Assembly: GCA_016874975.1 (NCBI GenBank)
Contig: VGSQ01000017.1
Span: 1-39,044 of the forward strand
From: Deltaproteobacteria bacterium
GTDB taxonomy: Bacteria > Desulfobacterota > Desulfobaccia > Desulfobaccales > 0-14-0-80-60-11
DNA length: 39,044 bases
Direction: 5' to 3'
Shown here: one piece after another, positions 3,297 through 29,105 of the stretch
Layout: each line of letters starts with the position of its first letter
Numbering within the stretch: the stretch's first letter is position 1
Position numbers and translations under genes: made by a program
The notes under the pieces: model-generated
The model's input: only the letters and a program-made list of their open reading frames with translations
Database searches by the model: none
Told to the model about the DNA's origin: nothing

Positions 3297-3917
3297 GAGC
3301 GATTTTATCCCGGCAGGCGCATCCCCCGTCCCTTCGCCGACGGCGCCGTCGTCCCTGCCGCCGGGGCCCCCCAGGGCTTACCCCGGGACCGGCCGGGGGG
3401 ACGGCTGAGCCCGCTTCTTACCACTCCTCTTAACGTATAACCAGGAACAACCCGCCATCCGGCGAAAAAATTTTCTCTGCCGCGTTTTCGGGCGGCCGCC
3501 GCGCCTCCAGACGCCGGGAACCCTCTTCTATTCAGTATAACCGATTATGAAAGTCCTTGCCTCTTTGTGAGGAGGGAGCGGCCAGCGCCGGAACGGCCCC
3601 CGGCTCACCATGGCGGGCTGCCGAAGCTCCGGCGCCGGTCCCTTCCGGCCGGGATAACGGCGGCACGGACAGCCGAGCACCGCCAGGCCCCGGTGGTTTC
3701 CAGTCAAGAAGATATGATCCAAGGGTGGAGCATCCGGAAAGGTCGCTTCGCAGGGGAAAACAGGGGACCATCCTCACCGGTCGCCGCAGACCCGTTCAAC
3801 AAGGCGGCAAAGAAAACCGGCGGCGGTGTACATCAGGGTGGCGGTGAACCGGGGACGGACCGCTCTGAGCGCCTCCTTTTCATGGTGGTCCCGGAATGCC
3901 GGGGGTAAGCAATCATG
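3297..3917. other. Long gap without a convincing gene
   Basis: About 620 bp between the divergently read-out ends of macA (start) and the methyltransferase (stop). The listed small ORFs overlap one another in several frames, have no ribosome site and no recognisable motif. The stretch should hold the macAB promoter, which is read leftward; TATA-like words occur near 3437 and 3535, but no paired -35/-10 box is convincing. Confidence 0.4.
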
Positions 3918-5159
3918 TCAAGGAAGGCTCTCTTTCAGAAGAGCCGCGAATTTTCGGGCATATTTATGCGGTATGGAAATGTCGGCCGCAGCCAAGCCGG
4001 ATTTGATTAAATAACTATTCACAAAAATTTTATTTTTTGTGTAGACATAAGCGGACAGCCTATCGTGTTCATCAAGATTGTCCGGGTGTTTTATTATCAC
4101 CGACTTTCCCAGCAGGGACGATGTCAGATAGTCCATCGCCTCTTCCTTCTTTTGCACGATCACTCCCAGAAATTTCACCAGTCGGCCGCTCTCCAGACGG
4201 ATGGTGCTCTCATCCACGATCTGCACCACTTTTTGGAGATTTTTCGGCTTGAAATCCCGGTCTTTCGTTTCCGGCTGCGGCTTGGCGTCCTGGAGGCGGG
4301 GGGTGTAGTCCAGGGGGGGCAGCGCCAGCCTGCCGGCCTTTCGTGTGCTAATGTCTATGTCCCTGGCAAAGAGCAAGCCTTCCTGCAAGCCCAGCTTTTC
4401 CCTGATGGCCCCCAGAAAGGCTTCGTTGACTTCATAGCCCACTCCGTGCCGCCCCAGGTCCAGGGCCGCCTTCACCGTGGTGCCGCTCCCGAGAAAAGGG
4501 TCCAGCACCGTGTCGCCGGGGAAGGTGAACATGCGGATCAGACGCCGGGGCAGCTCTTCGGGGAACATGGCTTCGTGGCCCAACTGGCGGGCGCCGCCGA
4601 AGCGCCAGTGTCCGGCGAAATATTCCTTCCATTCCTCCTTGGTGAGGCGGGCGGCCTCCTTGAGCTCCCGGGCCACCTTTTTGGACTCTCCGGGCTTCTT
4701 GAAGATGAGGATGTGCTCGTAGTCGATCTCCACCAGGCCGTTGGGGGGAAAGGGATAGGAGCCCATGATGACGGCGCCGCCGGTGGTGTGCATGGTGGTC
4801 TTCTTCTGCCAGATGATGCTCCCCAGGAAATCCAGGCCCAGCTCCTCGCCCTGGCAGATGATCTCCGCGTGCAGCGGGATGATCTTGTAGCGCCCGTACA
4901 CCGCGGCCCGGGCGAATTGGTCGCCGATGTTGACGCACAGGCGCCCCCCGGGCCGGAGCACCCGGCGGCACTCCCGCCAGACCCGGTAGAGGTCGCAGAG
5001 ATAGTCATGCAGGCTCTGGCCGTAGCCGATCTGGCCGGGGACGCCATAGTCCTTGAGATGCCAGTAGGGCGGGGAGGTGACCACCAGGTCCACGGCGTCC
5101 GCCGCCACTTCGGGCATGAGGCGGCTGTCGCCGATGATGAGGCGGGCTGTAGCGCTCAT
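3918..5159 (-). CDS. Beta-class DNA methyltransferase fused to a degenerate SNase-like domain
   Basis: 413 aa. Residues 1 to about 265 are an amino-methyltransferase (N4-cytosine or N6-adenine) in the beta order: catalytic motif IV TSPPYW (28-33) comes before the AdoMet-binding motif DPFLGSGTT (220-228). After a charged linker (about 285-305), residues about 308-413 resemble the staphylococcal/thermonuclease fold: VVQIVDESTIRLESGRLVKFLGV, later HDRLSAYVYTKNKIFVNSYL and SGLAAADI. The usual nuclease catalytic segment (Asp in GIDTPE) is replaced by VIVQKKEE, and the first catalytic Arg is Lys, so this tail is probably a DNA-binding or inactive nuclease domain. The tail is encoded by visibly more AT-rich DNA than the methyltransferase part. 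No restriction-endonuclease gene lies next to it. The target site cannot be predicted. Confidence 0.85.
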   Translation of the reverse strand: MSATARLIIGDSRLMPEVAADAVDLVVTSPPYWHLKDYGVPGQIGYGQSLHDYLCDLYRVWRECRRVLRPGGRLCVNIGDQFARAAVYGRYKIIPLHAEIICQGEELGLDFLGSIIWQKKTTMHTTGGAVIMGSYPFPPNGLVEIDYEHILIFKKPGESKKVARELKEAARLTKEEWKEYFAGHWRFGGARQLGHEAMFPEELPRRLIRMFTFPGDTVLDPFLGSGTTVKAALDLGRHGVGYEVNEAFLGAIREKLGLQEGLLFARDIDISTRKAGRLALPPLDYTPRLQDAKPQPETKDRDFKPKNLQKVVQIVDESTIRLESGRLVKFLGVIVQKKEEAMDYLTSSLLGKSVIIKHPDNLDEHDRLSAYVYTKNKIFVNSYLIKSGLAAADISIPHKYARKFAALLKESLP

Positions 5160-5243: not shown

Positions 5244-5825
5244 TCATTTCGCCAACACTTGCAAACTCTGTCGCAATAACTCTTCCAACGTCCCGGCCCC
5301 CTGGGAGCGGGCCGCGTCCAGGGCCTTTTCTGCGGTGTTGCGGGGGTAGCCCAGGTTGAGCAGGGCGGACAGGGCGTCCTGCACCTGCTTCTGCGCCGGG
5401 GCCGGCAGGGCCCGTTTGGCGCCCGGGGCCAGCTTGTCCTTAAGCTCCACGATGATGCGCTCCGCGGATTTGCGCCCCACCCCGGGGATGGCGGACAGAC
5501 GCCTGAGGTCGCTCGCGAGGATGGCCTGCTGGAACTCCTCGGGGTCGATGCCGCTTAAAATGTTCAGGGCGGTCCTCGCCCCCACCCGGGGGATATTGAT
5601 GAGCTGCAGGAAGAGGTCTTTTTCCTCCTGGGTGACAAAGCCGTACAGGTTCAGGGCCTCTTCCTGGATGCGGGTGTGGATGCGCAGGGTCACCGGAGCC
5701 GGCGGCTCGGGCAGGGCATAGAAGGTGGTGAGCGAAATGAAGACCTGATAGCCCACGCCGCCCACCTGGACCAGCAGGAGGCCCGGGGCTTTTTCCAGCA
5801 GGAGGCCTTCCAGGGCGGCGATCAT
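5244..5825 (-). CDS. ruvA: Holliday junction branch migration protein RuvA
   Basis: 193 aa from the ATG at 5825 (MIAALEGLLLEKAPG); the track's longer start adds 13 residues inside ruvC and is not credible. Domain I is the OB fold. Domain II carries two helix-hairpin-helix motifs (LINIPRVGARTALNIL and LSAIPGVGRKSAERII) that bind the junction. Domain III, the RuvB-contacting three-helix unit, is at the C terminus (DALSALLNLGYPRNTAEKAL). The ATG overlaps the ruvC TGA (ATGA), giving translational coupling. RuvA tetramers hold the four-way junction while RuvB motors move it; ruvB is not adjacent here within the window. Confidence 0.97.
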   Translation of the reverse strand: MIAALEGLLLEKAPGLLLVQVGGVGYQVFISLTTFYALPEPPAPVTLRIHTRIQEEALNLYGFVTQEEKDLFLQLINIPRVGARTALNILSGIDPEEFQQAILASDLRRLSAIPGVGRKSAERIIVELKDKLAPGAKRALPAPAQKQVQDALSALLNLGYPRNTAEKALDAARSQGAGTLEELLRQSLQVLAK

Positions 5826-6310
5826 ACGACCTTCAGGTGCGCCGGGGAGTTGAACAGGTGGCACAGCCCCACGGCCAGGGCGTCCGCGGCGTGCTGGTTG
5901 GTCACCGTCAGGCCCAGGAGGCGCTCCACCATGAGCCGCACCTGCTCCTTGCTGGCCTGGCCGTAGCCCACCACCGCCTTCTTCACCACCAGGGCGGGAT
6001 AGAGATGGATGGGGAGCTCCGCCTGGGCCGCGGCCAGCAGCACCACGCCCCGCACCTGTCCCAGGGTGAGGGCGCTCTGCACGCTGGCGGCCAGGAAGAT
6101 GTCCTCCAGGGCCAGGCTGTGGGGCCGGTGCCGCCGGATGAGGTCGGCCAGGGCGTCATAAATCTGACGCAGGCGGTCCGGCAGGGAGGCGCGGCCGTTC
6201 GTGGCGATGCGGCCGTGGGCCAGATGCACCAGCCGGTCCCGCTCCCCCTGGACCACCCCGAAACCGGTGTTGCGGGAGCCCGGGTCCACCCCCAGGACCA
6301 CCTGCCTCAC
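5822..6310 (-). CDS. ruvC: Crossover junction endodeoxyribonuclease RuvC
   Basis: 162 aa from a GTG at 6310 (VRQVVLGVDPGSRNTGFG), which overlaps the yebC stop in the pattern GTGA. The track's start 90 residues upstream only reads through yebC. RNase H-like resolvase fold: first catalytic Asp in GVDPGSRNTG, Glu in LALEDIF, and the last acidic pair in HAADALAVGLCHL. It cuts Holliday junctions symmetrically in the RuvABC resolvasome. The KKAVVGYGQASKEQV segment, typical of the family, is intact. It is coupled at both ends, to yebC upstream and ruvA downstream. Confidence 0.97.
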   Translation of the reverse strand: MRQVVLGVDPGSRNTGFGVVQGERDRLVHLAHGRIATNGRASLPDRLRQIYDALADLIRRHRPHSLALEDIFLAASVQSALTLGQVRGVVLLAAAQAELPIHLYPALVVKKAVVGYGQASKEQVRLMVERLLGLTVTNQHAADALAVGLCHLFNSPAHLKVV

Positions 6311-7056
6311 ATCAAGGCCTCCAGCAGTTGGTCGGGAATGTCGAAATTGGCGAACACGCTGCTCACGTCGTCGTGGTCCTCCAGGCTCGTCACCAGTCTC
6401 AGCACCTGCTGGGCCGGGTGCTCCTCCGTGATTCTGACCGTGTTTTTCGGCCGCAGTTGCAGCTCCGCCAAGACCGGCGTAAAGCCCCGGTCCTCCAGGG
6501 CTTCCTTGACTTCCACAAAATCGGCCGGGTCTGTGAGGACCTCGAACTGGCTCTCCGAGCCCTGCAAATCCTCGGCGCCGCACTCCAGGGCGGCCTCCAT
6601 CAGGTCGTCCTCGCTGATGCCCTCCCGGTCGAAAACAATGACCCCTTTTTTCTCAAACATCCAGGCCACGCAGCCCGGTTCGCCCAGACTGCCGCCGTTC
6701 TTGGTGAAGATGTGGCGCACGTCCGCAATGGTGCGGTTTTTGTTGTCCGTCAGGATCTCCACCATCAGGGCCACCCCCGCCGGGCCGTAGCCCTCGTAAA
6801 CCGCCTCCTCCAGGTTGGTGCCGCCCCCATCCCCGGCGCCTTTGCGGATGGCCCGGGAGATGTTGTCCTTGGGCATATTCTCGGCCTTGGCGGCCAGGAT
6901 GGCGGCCCTGAGGCGGCTGTTGCCCGAGGGGTCGGGTCCTCCCAAACGGGCCGCGACTATGATTTCCTTGGCCAATTTCCCGAAGAGATTCCCCCGCTTG
7001 GCGTCCTGGGCCCCCTTCTTCCGTTTGATGGTGCTCCATTTGGAATGACCTGACAT
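6307..7056 (-). CDS. yebC: YebC/TACO1-family protein
   Basis: 249 aa, the normal family length, opening with the diagnostic MSGHSKWSTIKRKKGAQDAKRG. The body keeps the three-domain architecture (RAAILAAKAENMPKDNI, GYGPAGVALMVEILTDNKNRT, NGGSLGEPGCVAWMF). Members were long annotated as transcriptional regulators; recent work links them to relief of ribosome stalling. The neighbourhood yebC-ruvC-ruvA is very widespread. A strong GGAGGT ribosome site lies inside the end of rlmE. Confidence 0.96.
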   Translation of the reverse strand: MSGHSKWSTIKRKKGAQDAKRGNLFGKLAKEIIVAARLGGPDPSGNSRLRAAILAAKAENMPKDNISRAIRKGAGDGGGTNLEEAVYEGYGPAGVALMVEILTDNKNRTIADVRHIFTKNGGSLGEPGCVAWMFEKKGVIVFDREGISEDDLMEAALECGAEDLQGSESQFEVLTDPADFVEVKEALEDRGFTPVLAELQLRPKNTVRITEEHPAQQVLRLVTSLEDHDDVSSVFANFDIPDQLLEALM

Positions 7057-21276: not shown

Positions 21277-21351
<75 letters not shown>

Positions 21352-21353
21352 GA

Positions 21354-21428
21354 GGCGGCATAGCCAAGAGGTAAGGCAGCGGTCTGCAAAACCGTTATTC
21401 ACCGGTTCGAATCCGGTTGCCGCCTCCA
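21354..21428 (+). tRNA. tRNA-Cys (anticodon GCA), integration target
   Basis: Complete cloverleaf: acceptor GGCGGCA with TGCCGCC, anticodon loop TCTGCAAAA with GCA, T-arm CCGGTTCGAATCCGG, encoded CCA. Its last 45 nt (21384-21428) recur exactly at 28682-28726, showing that a mobile element inserted at its 3' end and left the gene functional. Confidence 0.96.
21384..21428 (+). repeat. attL, 45-bp direct repeat copy 1
   Basis: Anticodon loop, variable and T-arm and acceptor 3' strand of tRNA-Cys, identical to 28682-28726. Confidence 0.93.
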
Positions 21429-21450
21429 TTTCCGGGCCTCCCTTCCTTTT

Positions 21451-21470
21451 GGTGTCCATATAGGTGTCCA
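21451..21470 (+). repeat. Putative integrase arm site, copy 1
   Basis: GGTGTCCATATAGGTGTCCA, a direct pair GGTGTC spaced by 6 bp, 23 bp inside attL. The same 18-mer recurs at 28543-28560 near the other end of the element. Confidence 0.6.
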
Positions 21471-21474
21471 TGCG

Positions 21475-22590
21475 TCAGATTTTCTCCCCCACCAGGGCCT
21501 TCAGTTCATCCTTGCTCACCGTGTTGTAGCGCCTGAAAATGTTCATGGTCTTGTGGCCGGACGCCGCCATGATTCTAAAGAAGTCATGGCCTTGGAGCCG
21601 CCAGTTGTTGATAGCAGTATGCCGCAGGTCATGAAAGGTGAAGTTCTCAATTCCCGCCCGCTTCCTGGCCGTCTCAAATGCCCTCTGAAACGTGCTCCCA
21701 AAGGCTTTCCCCTTGTAAGGGAATACCCGCAACGCCGGCAGCCCCCTGGGCATGGCCTTGAACATCTCCACCATCTCCCCGTTCAAGGGCACTAACCGCC
21801 CTTCGTTCGTCTTGGTATGCTCCGGGTTCAGGCGGATGAAGCCTTCCTTCAGGTCCACTTGCCCCCACGTCAGGTTCAGTATTTCCCCTTGCCTCATGGC
21901 GGTATGGTAGGCCAGCTTGATTATGGGTCTCAAATGCTCCGGGCAGGCGGCCAGCAGCCGGGCATACTCTTCAGGGCTCAACACCCGGTCCCGCTCATTG
22001 TTCTCCTTTAGCAGCTTCACTCCCTGGGCCGGGTTGCGCTCCGCCTTGCCGTTCCTCACGGCTTTGCTGAAGATGGTCTTGAGACAAGCCACTTCCCGGT
22101 TAACCGTGGCCGGGGCCGTCAAGGTTGAGGGGGTGCGCCCGGACGGTTCGGCAAGCCGCTTCTGCCGGTAGGCTTCCACCAGGGCCGGGGTTATGTCCTT
22201 CAAAAGCTTATCCCCAAAATGGGACAGCAGGTTAGCTATCAGTTCCTTGTCCCGTCCATAGCTCCGCTTGGCCTTCACTTCGGGCAGGGCCAGATACCAG
22301 GCGGCCAGGTCCTTGAAGAGGGTGCGGGCGTCAGGGCTCTTCTTGATATGCCGTCCCTCCGTCCGGGCGCTCAGCACCTCCCGCAGCCGTTGCTCCGCCG
22401 CGGCCTTATTGGGGCCGATGCGCTCCCGGAGACGCTGGCCATCCTGGTAATACTCAATCCACCATACCCGCCCTGAAAACTTCGCCAGGGAAAAGCCGCA
22501 GGGTGATCCGTCCGCCATCTTCCCCGTGCACATCTTGGCCTTGACGCTGTTCCGCTTCCTGCACTCCGGGCATTCAATCAGCAGTCCCAT
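21475..22590 (-). CDS. int: Tyrosine recombinase / phage-type integrase
   Basis: 371 aa. An N-terminal zinc ribbon (C-x2-C ... C-x8-C: CPECRKRN and MCTGKMADGSPCGF) is followed by an AP2-like arm-binding region, a core-binding SAM-like domain (about 90-190), and the catalytic domain. Catalytic residues: Arg in YHTAMRQGEIL, His-x2-Arg in FHDLRHTAINNW, His in ASGHKTMNI and Tyr in RRYNTVSKD. It would recombine at the tRNA-Cys 3' end. The stop lies 46 nt from the tRNA, the typical int-att geometry. Its GGAGGT ribosome site is inside the end of the upstream xre gene. Confidence 0.96.
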   Translation of the reverse strand: MGLLIECPECRKRNSVKAKMCTGKMADGSPCGFSLAKFSGRVWWIEYYQDGQRLRERIGPNKAAAEQRLREVLSARTEGRHIKKSPDARTLFKDLAAWYLALPEVKAKRSYGRDKELIANLLSHFGDKLLKDITPALVEAYRQKRLAEPSGRTPSTLTAPATVNREVACLKTIFSKAVRNGKAERNPAQGVKLLKENNERDRVLSPEEYARLLAACPEHLRPIIKLAYHTAMRQGEILNLTWGQVDLKEGFIRLNPEHTKTNEGRLVPLNGEMVEMFKAMPRGLPALRVFPYKGKAFGSTFQRAFETARKRAGIENFTFHDLRHTAINNWRLQGHDFFRIMAASGHKTMNIFRRYNTVSKDELKALVGEKI

Positions 22591-23890: not shown

Positions 23891-24367
23891 TTAAAGGATT
23901 GTTGCTGCGGTGTATAGTAACCAATTTATAAGTCTTAAAACCATAAAAAGATATAATGCAATGGTTATCTGAACCAATACCCCATCATCTCTATTTATCT
24001 TTCTGGCTGTTGGCATAAATAGTAATGATAAGAAAAAAGTGAATAATAACCTAACTAACCCTACAGTTTCATTATACCAAATATTATTGTCATGCACCAA
24101 CAAAGAATCAAAATAATGATGACATAAAATCATAGAGGCTAAAAGAGGCCAACCTTTTATTTTTCCTTTAATATAATGCTGGTCAATATCTAATGTCCTA
24201 TAAATCACCCCAGTAATTTTATCAGATAAAGGTTTAGAAAGTATTGCCTCACCCTCTTCGACTAATTTATAAGGAACTTGAGCATTTTTCTCCAACCATT
24301 CACTACAATGCTTACATTTAATCGCCTCATCCTGAATCTCCTCAGCACAATAAGGACATTTTTTCAT
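23891..24367 (-). CDS. Zinc-ribbon membrane protein, AT-rich cargo gene
   Basis: 158 aa from ATG 24367 with an AAAGGGGG ribosome site; the track starts 17 codons earlier. An N-terminal zinc ribbon (KKCPYCAEEIQDEAIKCKHCSEWL, C-x2-C-x11-C-x2-C) is followed by a PH-like segment (EEGEAILSKPLSDKITGVIYRTL) and about three membrane helices (WPLLASMILCHHY, LVRLLFTFFLSLLFM, LVQITIALYLFMVLRLINWLL). The DNA is strikingly AT-rich compared with every neighbour, a sign of separate acquisition. Membrane-associated zinc-ribbon proteins of this shape sometimes act as abortive-infection or signalling effectors, but no function can be assigned. Confidence 0.75.
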   Translation of the reverse strand: MKKCPYCAEEIQDEAIKCKHCSEWLEKNAQVPYKLVEEGEAILSKPLSDKITGVIYRTLDIDQHYIKGKIKGWPLLASMILCHHYFDSLLVHDNNIWYNETVGLVRLLFTFFLSLLFMPTARKINRDDGVLVQITIALYLFMVLRLINWLLYTAATIL

Positions 24368-24503
24368 TATGCCCCCTTTAAAACAGGATAAACCTACCAG
24401 CGCCAGCCTGACGTACAATTATCTCACAATACAACAAGTTATTTTAGAAAATCAAGTGGTTTCCCCCACTATCAAATCCTCTCGCATATGGCCTCCCTAC
24501 CCC

Positions 24504-28893: not shown

Positions 28894-29021
28894 GAAACCG
28901 GGCTATGCAATAATTTTGGTAGAGTAGAGCACTGATGAGAGAGAGCGTGACCACGAGCGCCTCGTGGCACGCCACTACTGCGGTCCAGGTCAGGCCAGGC
29001 CCTCATCCGCGCCCCCTCGTC

Positions 29022-29054
29022 AAACCGGACGTGCGGGTTTCCCGCATCCGGCTT
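29022..29054 (-). ncRNA. Group II intron domain V
   Basis: On the minus strand AAGCCGGATGCGGGAAA pairs with CCCGCACGTCCGGTTT, giving the two-part helix, GAAA-like loop and AGC triad of catalytic domain V. It lies 50 nt downstream of the maturase fragment; the following GC-rich sequence probably includes domain VI. Confidence 0.8.
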
Positions 29055-29105
29055 ACCGATGATCTCTCAGCCCCAGGCATTCGCAGGGAGTTGACGGCTG
29101 TGCCA

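What the first reader, a model, noticed from the sequence alone, without database searches (positions are those of the whole stretch)
3918..5159. DNA methyltransferase fused to an SNase-like domain with lost catalytic residues
A methyltransferase with a nuclease-fold tail would be a self-contained restriction-modification protein, but the tail lacks the catalytic Asp segment. It may have become a DNA- or RNA-binding or reader module. The AT-rich coding of the tail suggests a recent fusion by horizontal capture.
Basis: partly seen in the sequence, partly recalled or inferred. Interest (0 to 1): 0.6.

Follow-up and report, generated by a model that had tools for sequence, protein, structure and literature searches.

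The report
CTAG DNA methylase with dead-nuclease tail
This gene encodes a DNA-marking enzyme, most likely an N4-cytosine methylase of the sequence CTAG, that carries a nuclease-shaped tail with no working active site; the fusion is old and widespread in bacteria and archaea, usually next to its cutting partner, and here the cutter has been lost while the marker was kept beside DNA-repair genes.

Summary
The ORF at 3918-5159(-) is a beta-class DNA methyltransferase (residues 1-285) followed by a domain (306-413) that matches staphylococcal nuclease by Pfam, AlphaFold2 and Foldseek; equivalents of the SNase catalytic residues are lost or not conserved, here and across 100 relatives. The fusion is not recent: about 100 full-length relatives share it across many bacterial and archaeal phyla. 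Nor is it a self-contained restriction enzyme: in 76 of 102 relatives the neighbouring gene is a separate MjaI-family restriction endonuclease. Characterised MjaI-family systems recognise CTAG, and CTAG is uniquely depleted in genomes carrying the pair (observed/expected 0.09, against 0.50 without). So this is the methylase of an MjaI-type Type II system with an extra tail that the characterised M.MthZI lacks. The window's genome has no such endonuclease; the gene follows rlmE-yebC-ruvC-ruvA, as in relatives, inside one well-supported endonuclease-less clade. Best read as a domesticated orphan m4C-CTAG methylase with a non-catalytic OB-fold tail, probably an accessory DNA-binding module (inferred). 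The tail's AT-richness is real but recurs in sister genomes and does not show recent capture.

The parts
3918..5159 (-). methyltransferase-SNase-like fusion gene, 413 aa (ATG start, TGA stop)
   Evidence: ORF list; Pfam; 80 relatives with the same architecture
4305..5159 (-). beta-class DNA methyltransferase domain, residues 1-285
   Evidence: PF01555 E 4.9e-43; closest solved structure TTHA0409 2zie, E 2.2e-55; Foldseek 2zif E 6e-23; 34% identity to M.MthZI, BLASTP E 7e-41
5061..5078 (-). motif IV TSPPYW (residues 28-33), catalytic
   Evidence: T28-Y32 invariant in A1; intact in all 11 orphan-clade members
4476..4502 (-). motif I DPFLGSGTT (residues 220-228), AdoMet binding; IV before I = beta class
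   Evidence: Nearly all residues invariant in A1; intact in the orphan clade
3921..4244 (-). SNase-like OB-fold tail, residues 306-413, catalytic residues replaced
   Evidence: PF00565; AF2 pLDDT 91; Foldseek SNase E 1e-6; residue table
4206..4208 (-). Ser318, at the position of SNase Asp21
   Evidence: Alignment and counts: E 20, G 14, N 13, D 12 of 100
4017..4034 (-). residues 376-381, part of the conserved Y-[LT]-K-N-K-x-F-x-N motif; N376 and N381 invariant
   Evidence: Invariant columns in A1 and A2
5244..5825 (-). ruvA, upstream and co-directional; 84-bp gap to the methylase gene
   Evidence: PF01330, PF07499; conserved synteny
5822..6301 (-). ruvC (start approximate)
   Evidence: PF02075 E 1.3e-45
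6307..7056 (-). yebC
   Evidence: PF01709, PF20772
7063..7731 (-). rlmE/FtsJ-like methyltransferase
   Evidence: PF01728 E 1.6e-44
3297..3917 (-). stretch downstream where relatives carry the MjaI endonuclease; no trace here
   Evidence: hmmsearch of the family endonuclease profile on all six frames of the window: no hit at E 10; PF09568 absent from the whole genome

Best explanation
The gene encodes an orphan N4-cytosine DNA methyltransferase of CTAG, derived from an MjaI-type Type II restriction-modification pair. The N-terminal beta-class domain binds AdoMet and methylates the cytosine of CTAG. [quoted passage not shown] An ancestor of this Desulfobacterota lineage lost the MjaI endonuclease and kept the methylase, in most sampled members behind ruvA, where it is inherited as a solitary gene. 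Shown here: domain make-up, loss of catalytic residues, ancient fusion, endonuclease partner in most relatives, absence here, synteny, single endonuclease-less clade. Inferred: CTAG specificity (from partner family, M.MthZI homology and CTAG depletion), m4C chemistry, tail function, and any regulatory role of the methylation.
For: Domains and fold. Catalytic residues lost across 100 relatives. Partner: PF09568 RE_MjaI (E 3e-51) encoded directly downstream, adjacent in 76 of 102 relatives. Specificity: plasmid pFZ1 encodes M.MthZI beside an 'MjaI family restriction endonuclease', the latter matching our endonuclease profile with 149 bits; M.MthZI is an experimentally characterised m4C CTAG methylase and M.MjaI a CTAG homologue (PMC5867850). 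CTAG observed/expected is 0.09 (39 against 412 expected) in genomes with the pair, 0.46 in orphan genomes, 0.50 in genomes with neither; it is the most depleted of 16 palindromic tetramers, p = 0.005 and 0.003. Orphan status: no PF09568 in the own genome nor in 6 further genomes of its family, of which 5 have the methylase. Eleven endonuclease-less rows including the window form one clade, SH-aLRT 96. Synteny rlmE-yebC-ruvC-ruvA-methylase in L003, L020, L028, L030, L052 and L140, and ruvA-methylase in L024 and L044. Methylase motifs intact in the clade; dN/dS 0.15-0.25 in the methylase part. Tail net charge averages +7.8 against +1.9 for the methylase part. CcrM precedent: PMC6787082.
Against: The characterised CTAG methylase M.MthZI is only 34% identical and has no such tail, so specificity is not transferred by close homology. 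TTHA0409, the closest solved structure, has unknown specificity. CTAG is also depleted in genomes without the system, and the comparison uses small samples and is not corrected for phylogeny. The tail's charge suggests DNA binding but does not prove it. Tail degeneration in some orphans could mean it matters only with the endonuclease.
Confidence: 0.7

Rival explanations
1. The tail is a coupling or control domain for the MjaI endonuclease (contacts it, or balances methylation against cutting), so in the window's orphan protein it is a fading relic.
For: The intact tail is present in 75 of 76 endonuclease-bearing relatives but in 18 of 26 without; all tail losses and C-terminal truncations are in the latter (the one exception, L056, is a frameshift).
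Against: Phylogenetically independent pairs do not reach significance. L125 is 99% identical to tail-bearing L108 but lacks tail and endonuclease, so single deletions spanning both could give the pattern. M.MthZI is paired with an MjaI-family endonuclease and has no tail. In the window the tail keeps the invariant N376 and N381.
Confidence: 0.2
2. A self-contained restriction-modification enzyme in which the tail still cuts.
For: SNase fold.
Against: Equivalents of D21, D40, E43 and R87 are not conserved in the family and mostly replaced; a dedicated endonuclease gene is next door in most relatives.
Confidence: 0.02
3. A recent fusion or horizontal capture of the tail in this lineage.
For: The tail is AT-rich: GC3 0.56 against 0.88.
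Against: Same fusion in about 100 relatives over many phyla; methylase and tail distances correlate, r 0.80; several sister genomes show the same skew. In the pair L028/L099 synonymous divergence is three times higher in the tail, consistent with weaker codon constraint.
Confidence: 0.03
4. A methylase of another motif than CTAG that only happens to sit beside MjaI-type endonucleases in relatives.
For: Only 34% identity to M.MthZI; closest structure TTHA0409 has unknown specificity.
Against: The partner family is CTAG-specific in two characterised systems, and CTAG is depleted about fivefold more in pair-bearing genomes. The MGS-PPN stretch near the presumed target-recognition region is shared with M.MthZI but not with the phage, plasmid and haloarchaeal homologues read.
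Confidence: 0.1

Closest known systems
MthZI restriction-modification system (plasmid pFZ1, Methanothermobacter), CTAG, m4C
   Same: Beta-class m4C methylase beside an MjaI-family endonuclease; methylase 34% identical over 292 columns; endonuclease matches the family profile
   Different: M.MthZI has no SNase-like tail; its endonuclease gene is convergent rather than co-directional; the window has no endonuclease
MjaI system of Methanocaldococcus jannaschii (CTAG)
   Same: Endonuclease family PF09568 found next to most relatives; control hit in M. jannaschii
   Different: M.MjaI lies within the 303-364 aa range given for the CTAG methylases (PMC5867850), too short for the 413-aa architecture; its sequence was not examined here
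Haloarchaeal orphan CTAG methylase (HVO_0794, Zim)
   Same: Orphan m4C CTAG methylase conserved in a lineage (PMC5867850, PMC6471742)
   Different: 364 aa by its gene size; different lineage; sequence not compared directly
TTHA0409 (PDB 2zie/2zif/2zig), Thermus thermophilus
   Same: Closest solved structure to the methylase domain
   Different: No SNase tail in the 297-residue chain; specificity unknown
CcrM (Caulobacter)
   Same: Beta-class methylase with a C-terminal accessory DNA-binding domain (PMC6787082)
   Different: CcrM is m6A GANTC, and its C-terminal domain is SAND/PWWP-like, not SNase-like
Staphylococcal nuclease / Tudor-SN SN-like domains
   Same: SNase fold; degenerate catalytic sites also occur in SN domains of Tudor-SN (own knowledge)
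   Different: Active-site residues gone; a different conserved motif, YLKNKxFxN; fused to a methylase

Membership tests
Beta-class N4/N6 DNA methyltransferase | PF01555 match, motif IV [TS]PPY before motif I DPFxGxGT | tested here: met
Beta-class N4/N6 DNA methyltransferase | Methylates cytosine N4 in vivo | not testable with these tools
   Needs a methylome
MjaI-type (CTAG) Type II restriction-modification system | Adjacent PF09568 endonuclease gene | tested here: not met
   Not in the window nor in the genome, although present in 76 of 102 relatives; so the window's gene is a derivative, not a complete system
MjaI-type (CTAG) Type II restriction-modification system | CTAG specificity | tested here: inconclusive
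   Indirect: CTAG observed/expected 0.09 in pair-bearing genomes, homology to M.MthZI
Orphan (solitary) DNA methyltransferase | No cognate endonuclease in the genome; conserved in the lineage | tested here: met
   the genome is 94% complete, so a missed contig is possible
Staphylococcal nuclease superfamily (fold) | SNase OB fold | tested here: met
Staphylococcal nuclease (active enzyme) | Catalytic Asp21, Arg35, Asp40, Glu43, Arg87 | tested here: not met
   S, K, I, K, R in the window; the set is not conserved in the family
Single-chain restriction-modification enzyme (Type IIG-like) | Functional nuclease domain in the same chain | tested here: not met

The most novel reading that the evidence does not exclude
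A widespread clade of CTAG methylases acquired a catalytically dead SNase domain early on as a new kind of DNA-engagement or partner-control module, and in one Desulfobacterota lineage such a methylase was recruited next to ruvC-ruvA to mark CTAG for recombination or repair, or as a heritable mark unrelated to restriction.
Probability: 0.12. Interest if true: 0.7.

Novelty: new variant of a known kind. Interest (0 to 1): 0.45.

Why it matters
It identifies a large, multi-phylum family of CTAG methylases, many from hot-habitat lineages, with a pseudo-nuclease tail that I found described in no paper of the searched library. It offers natural cases with and without endonuclease, and with and without tail, to test what dead SNase domains do on methylases. 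It also gives a case of a restriction methylase becoming a resident solitary gene, parallel to the haloarchaeal orphan CTAG methylase.

Tried and rejected
Searching the 113-aa tail by single sequence against PDB gave nothing; a profile was needed. Looking for an endonuclease remnant in 3297-3917 by profile gave no hit. The correlation of tail integrity with endonuclease presence looked strong (Fisher p 5e-5) but is not supported by the independent-pairs test and is partly explained by deletions spanning both. The recent-capture reading of the AT-rich tail was rejected. Phage, plasmid and viral contigs: no tail in the 80 best viral loci by tail profile; homologues in phage and plasmid records align mostly only to the methylase part. 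Literature searches for the SNase-methylase fusion returned no paper.

Full report
Observation. The window holds one open reading frame at 3918-5159 on the minus strand, 413 aa. Residues 23-250 match the N6_N4_Mtase family (E 4.9e-43), and 339-397 match SNase above Pfam's cut-off. AlphaFold2, using 62 natural tails, gives a confident OB-fold-like domain (pLDDT 91), and the best solved structures are all staphylococcal nuclease (E 1e-6). Even the full-length model retrieves SNase after the methylases. The SNase catalytic set is not kept: S, K, I, K, R stand at the positions of D21, R35, D40, E43 and R87 in the window, and the set is not conserved across 100 relatives. What is conserved is a different motif, YLKNKxFxN, with two invariant asparagines.

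Age of the fusion. A scan of one genome per species found 165 encoding stretches; the best 80 align at 54-75% identity, nearly all over the full length, in many bacterial phyla and in archaea such as Archaeoglobus, Geoglobus and Methanophagales. Methylase-part and tail distances correlate (r 0.80). The AT-rich tail is real in this gene and in several sister orphan genes, but not in GC-rich Chloroflexota copies. In the one close orphan pair measured, synonymous change is faster in the tail than in the methylase part (dS 0.98 against 0.33). I read it as weaker codon constraint or slow amelioration, not recent capture; the cause is not settled.

Partner gene. The most frequent neighbour of the relatives is a mostly co-directional gene directly downstream, about 160-260 aa. 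It belongs to the MjaI restriction endonuclease family PF09568 (E 3e-51). A profile made from it finds it beside 76 of 102 relatives. Plasmid pFZ1, home of the CTAG system MthZI, carries an MjaI-family endonuclease next to its methylase; that endonuclease matches the profile with 149 bits, while M.MthZI lacks the tail. That the pFZ1 methylase is M.MthZI is from my own knowledge of that plasmid plus the annotation. M.MthZI is an experimentally characterised m4C CTAG methylase, and M.MjaI and HVO_0794 are CTAG homologues of 303-364 aa (PMC5867850).

Independent support for CTAG. In sampled stretches of genomes of the same phylum, CTAG has observed/expected 0.09 where methylase and endonuclease occur together, 0.46 where the methylase is solitary, and 0.50 where no such methylase was found; it is the most depleted of all 16 palindromic tetramers. 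This is what restriction pressure at CTAG would give. The samples are small and not corrected for kinship.

The window's copy. No endonuclease trace lies in the window and none in its genome, nor in six other genomes of its family, of which five have the methylase. Eleven endonuclease-less sequences, the window among them, form one clade (SH-aLRT 96) inside a tree dominated by endonuclease-bearing members. In several of these genomes the gene follows rlmE-yebC-ruvC-ruvA, as in the window; ruvB lies on another contig. Relatives without it at that place keep the rlmE-yebC-ruvC-ruvA block. The methylase motifs are intact and dN/dS is 0.15-0.25, so the protein is probably active. A single loss of the endonuclease and retention of the methylase is the simplest account.

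Function of the tail. It cannot be a nuclease by its residues. It is more basic than the methylase part (mean net charge +7.8 against +1.9). CcrM, another beta-class methylase, carries an accessory C-terminal domain that holds the non-target strand (PMC6787082). I therefore favour a DNA-engagement module. The rival, coupling to the endonuclease, draws on the fact that all tail losses except one frameshift lie in endonuclease-less genes, but independent pairs do not support it, and adjacent deletion explains cases such as L125.

Verdict. New variant of a known kind: an MjaI-type CTAG methylase with a dead SNase tail, here an orphan. The fusion was not found in the papers searched, but REBASE and subscription papers were not available.

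Noticed in passing
window 21277-22590: tRNA-Gly(gcc) and tRNA-Cys(gca) followed by a tyrosine integrase gene (21475-22590, minus): probable integrated element at a tRNA.
   Followed up: no
window 28919-29056 (-): Rfam group II intron domain match (RF00029, 45.9 bits) near the presumed element.
   Followed up: no
window 23900-24420: AT-rich island (GC about 0.35) in a GC-rich window; the minus strand appears to encode a small protein with a zinc-ribbon-like start (MKKCPYCAEEIQDEAIKC), read by eye.
   Followed up: no
L056 (WOR-3 MAG), 144-1380: The fusion gene is frameshifted inside the tail while the endonuclease gene downstream is largely intact: decay or sequencing error.
   Followed up: partly
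L125 against L108: Nearly identical methylases (99%) from two genomes, one with tail and endonuclease, the other with both gone: a recent deletion.
   Followed up: partly
L020, L028, L032, L099: Orphan relatives whose tails end before the last helix.
   Followed up: partly
G000:C3:34900-35565 (L082): A second methylase of the own genome, 46% identical over residues 13-250 and without the tail.
   Followed up: no
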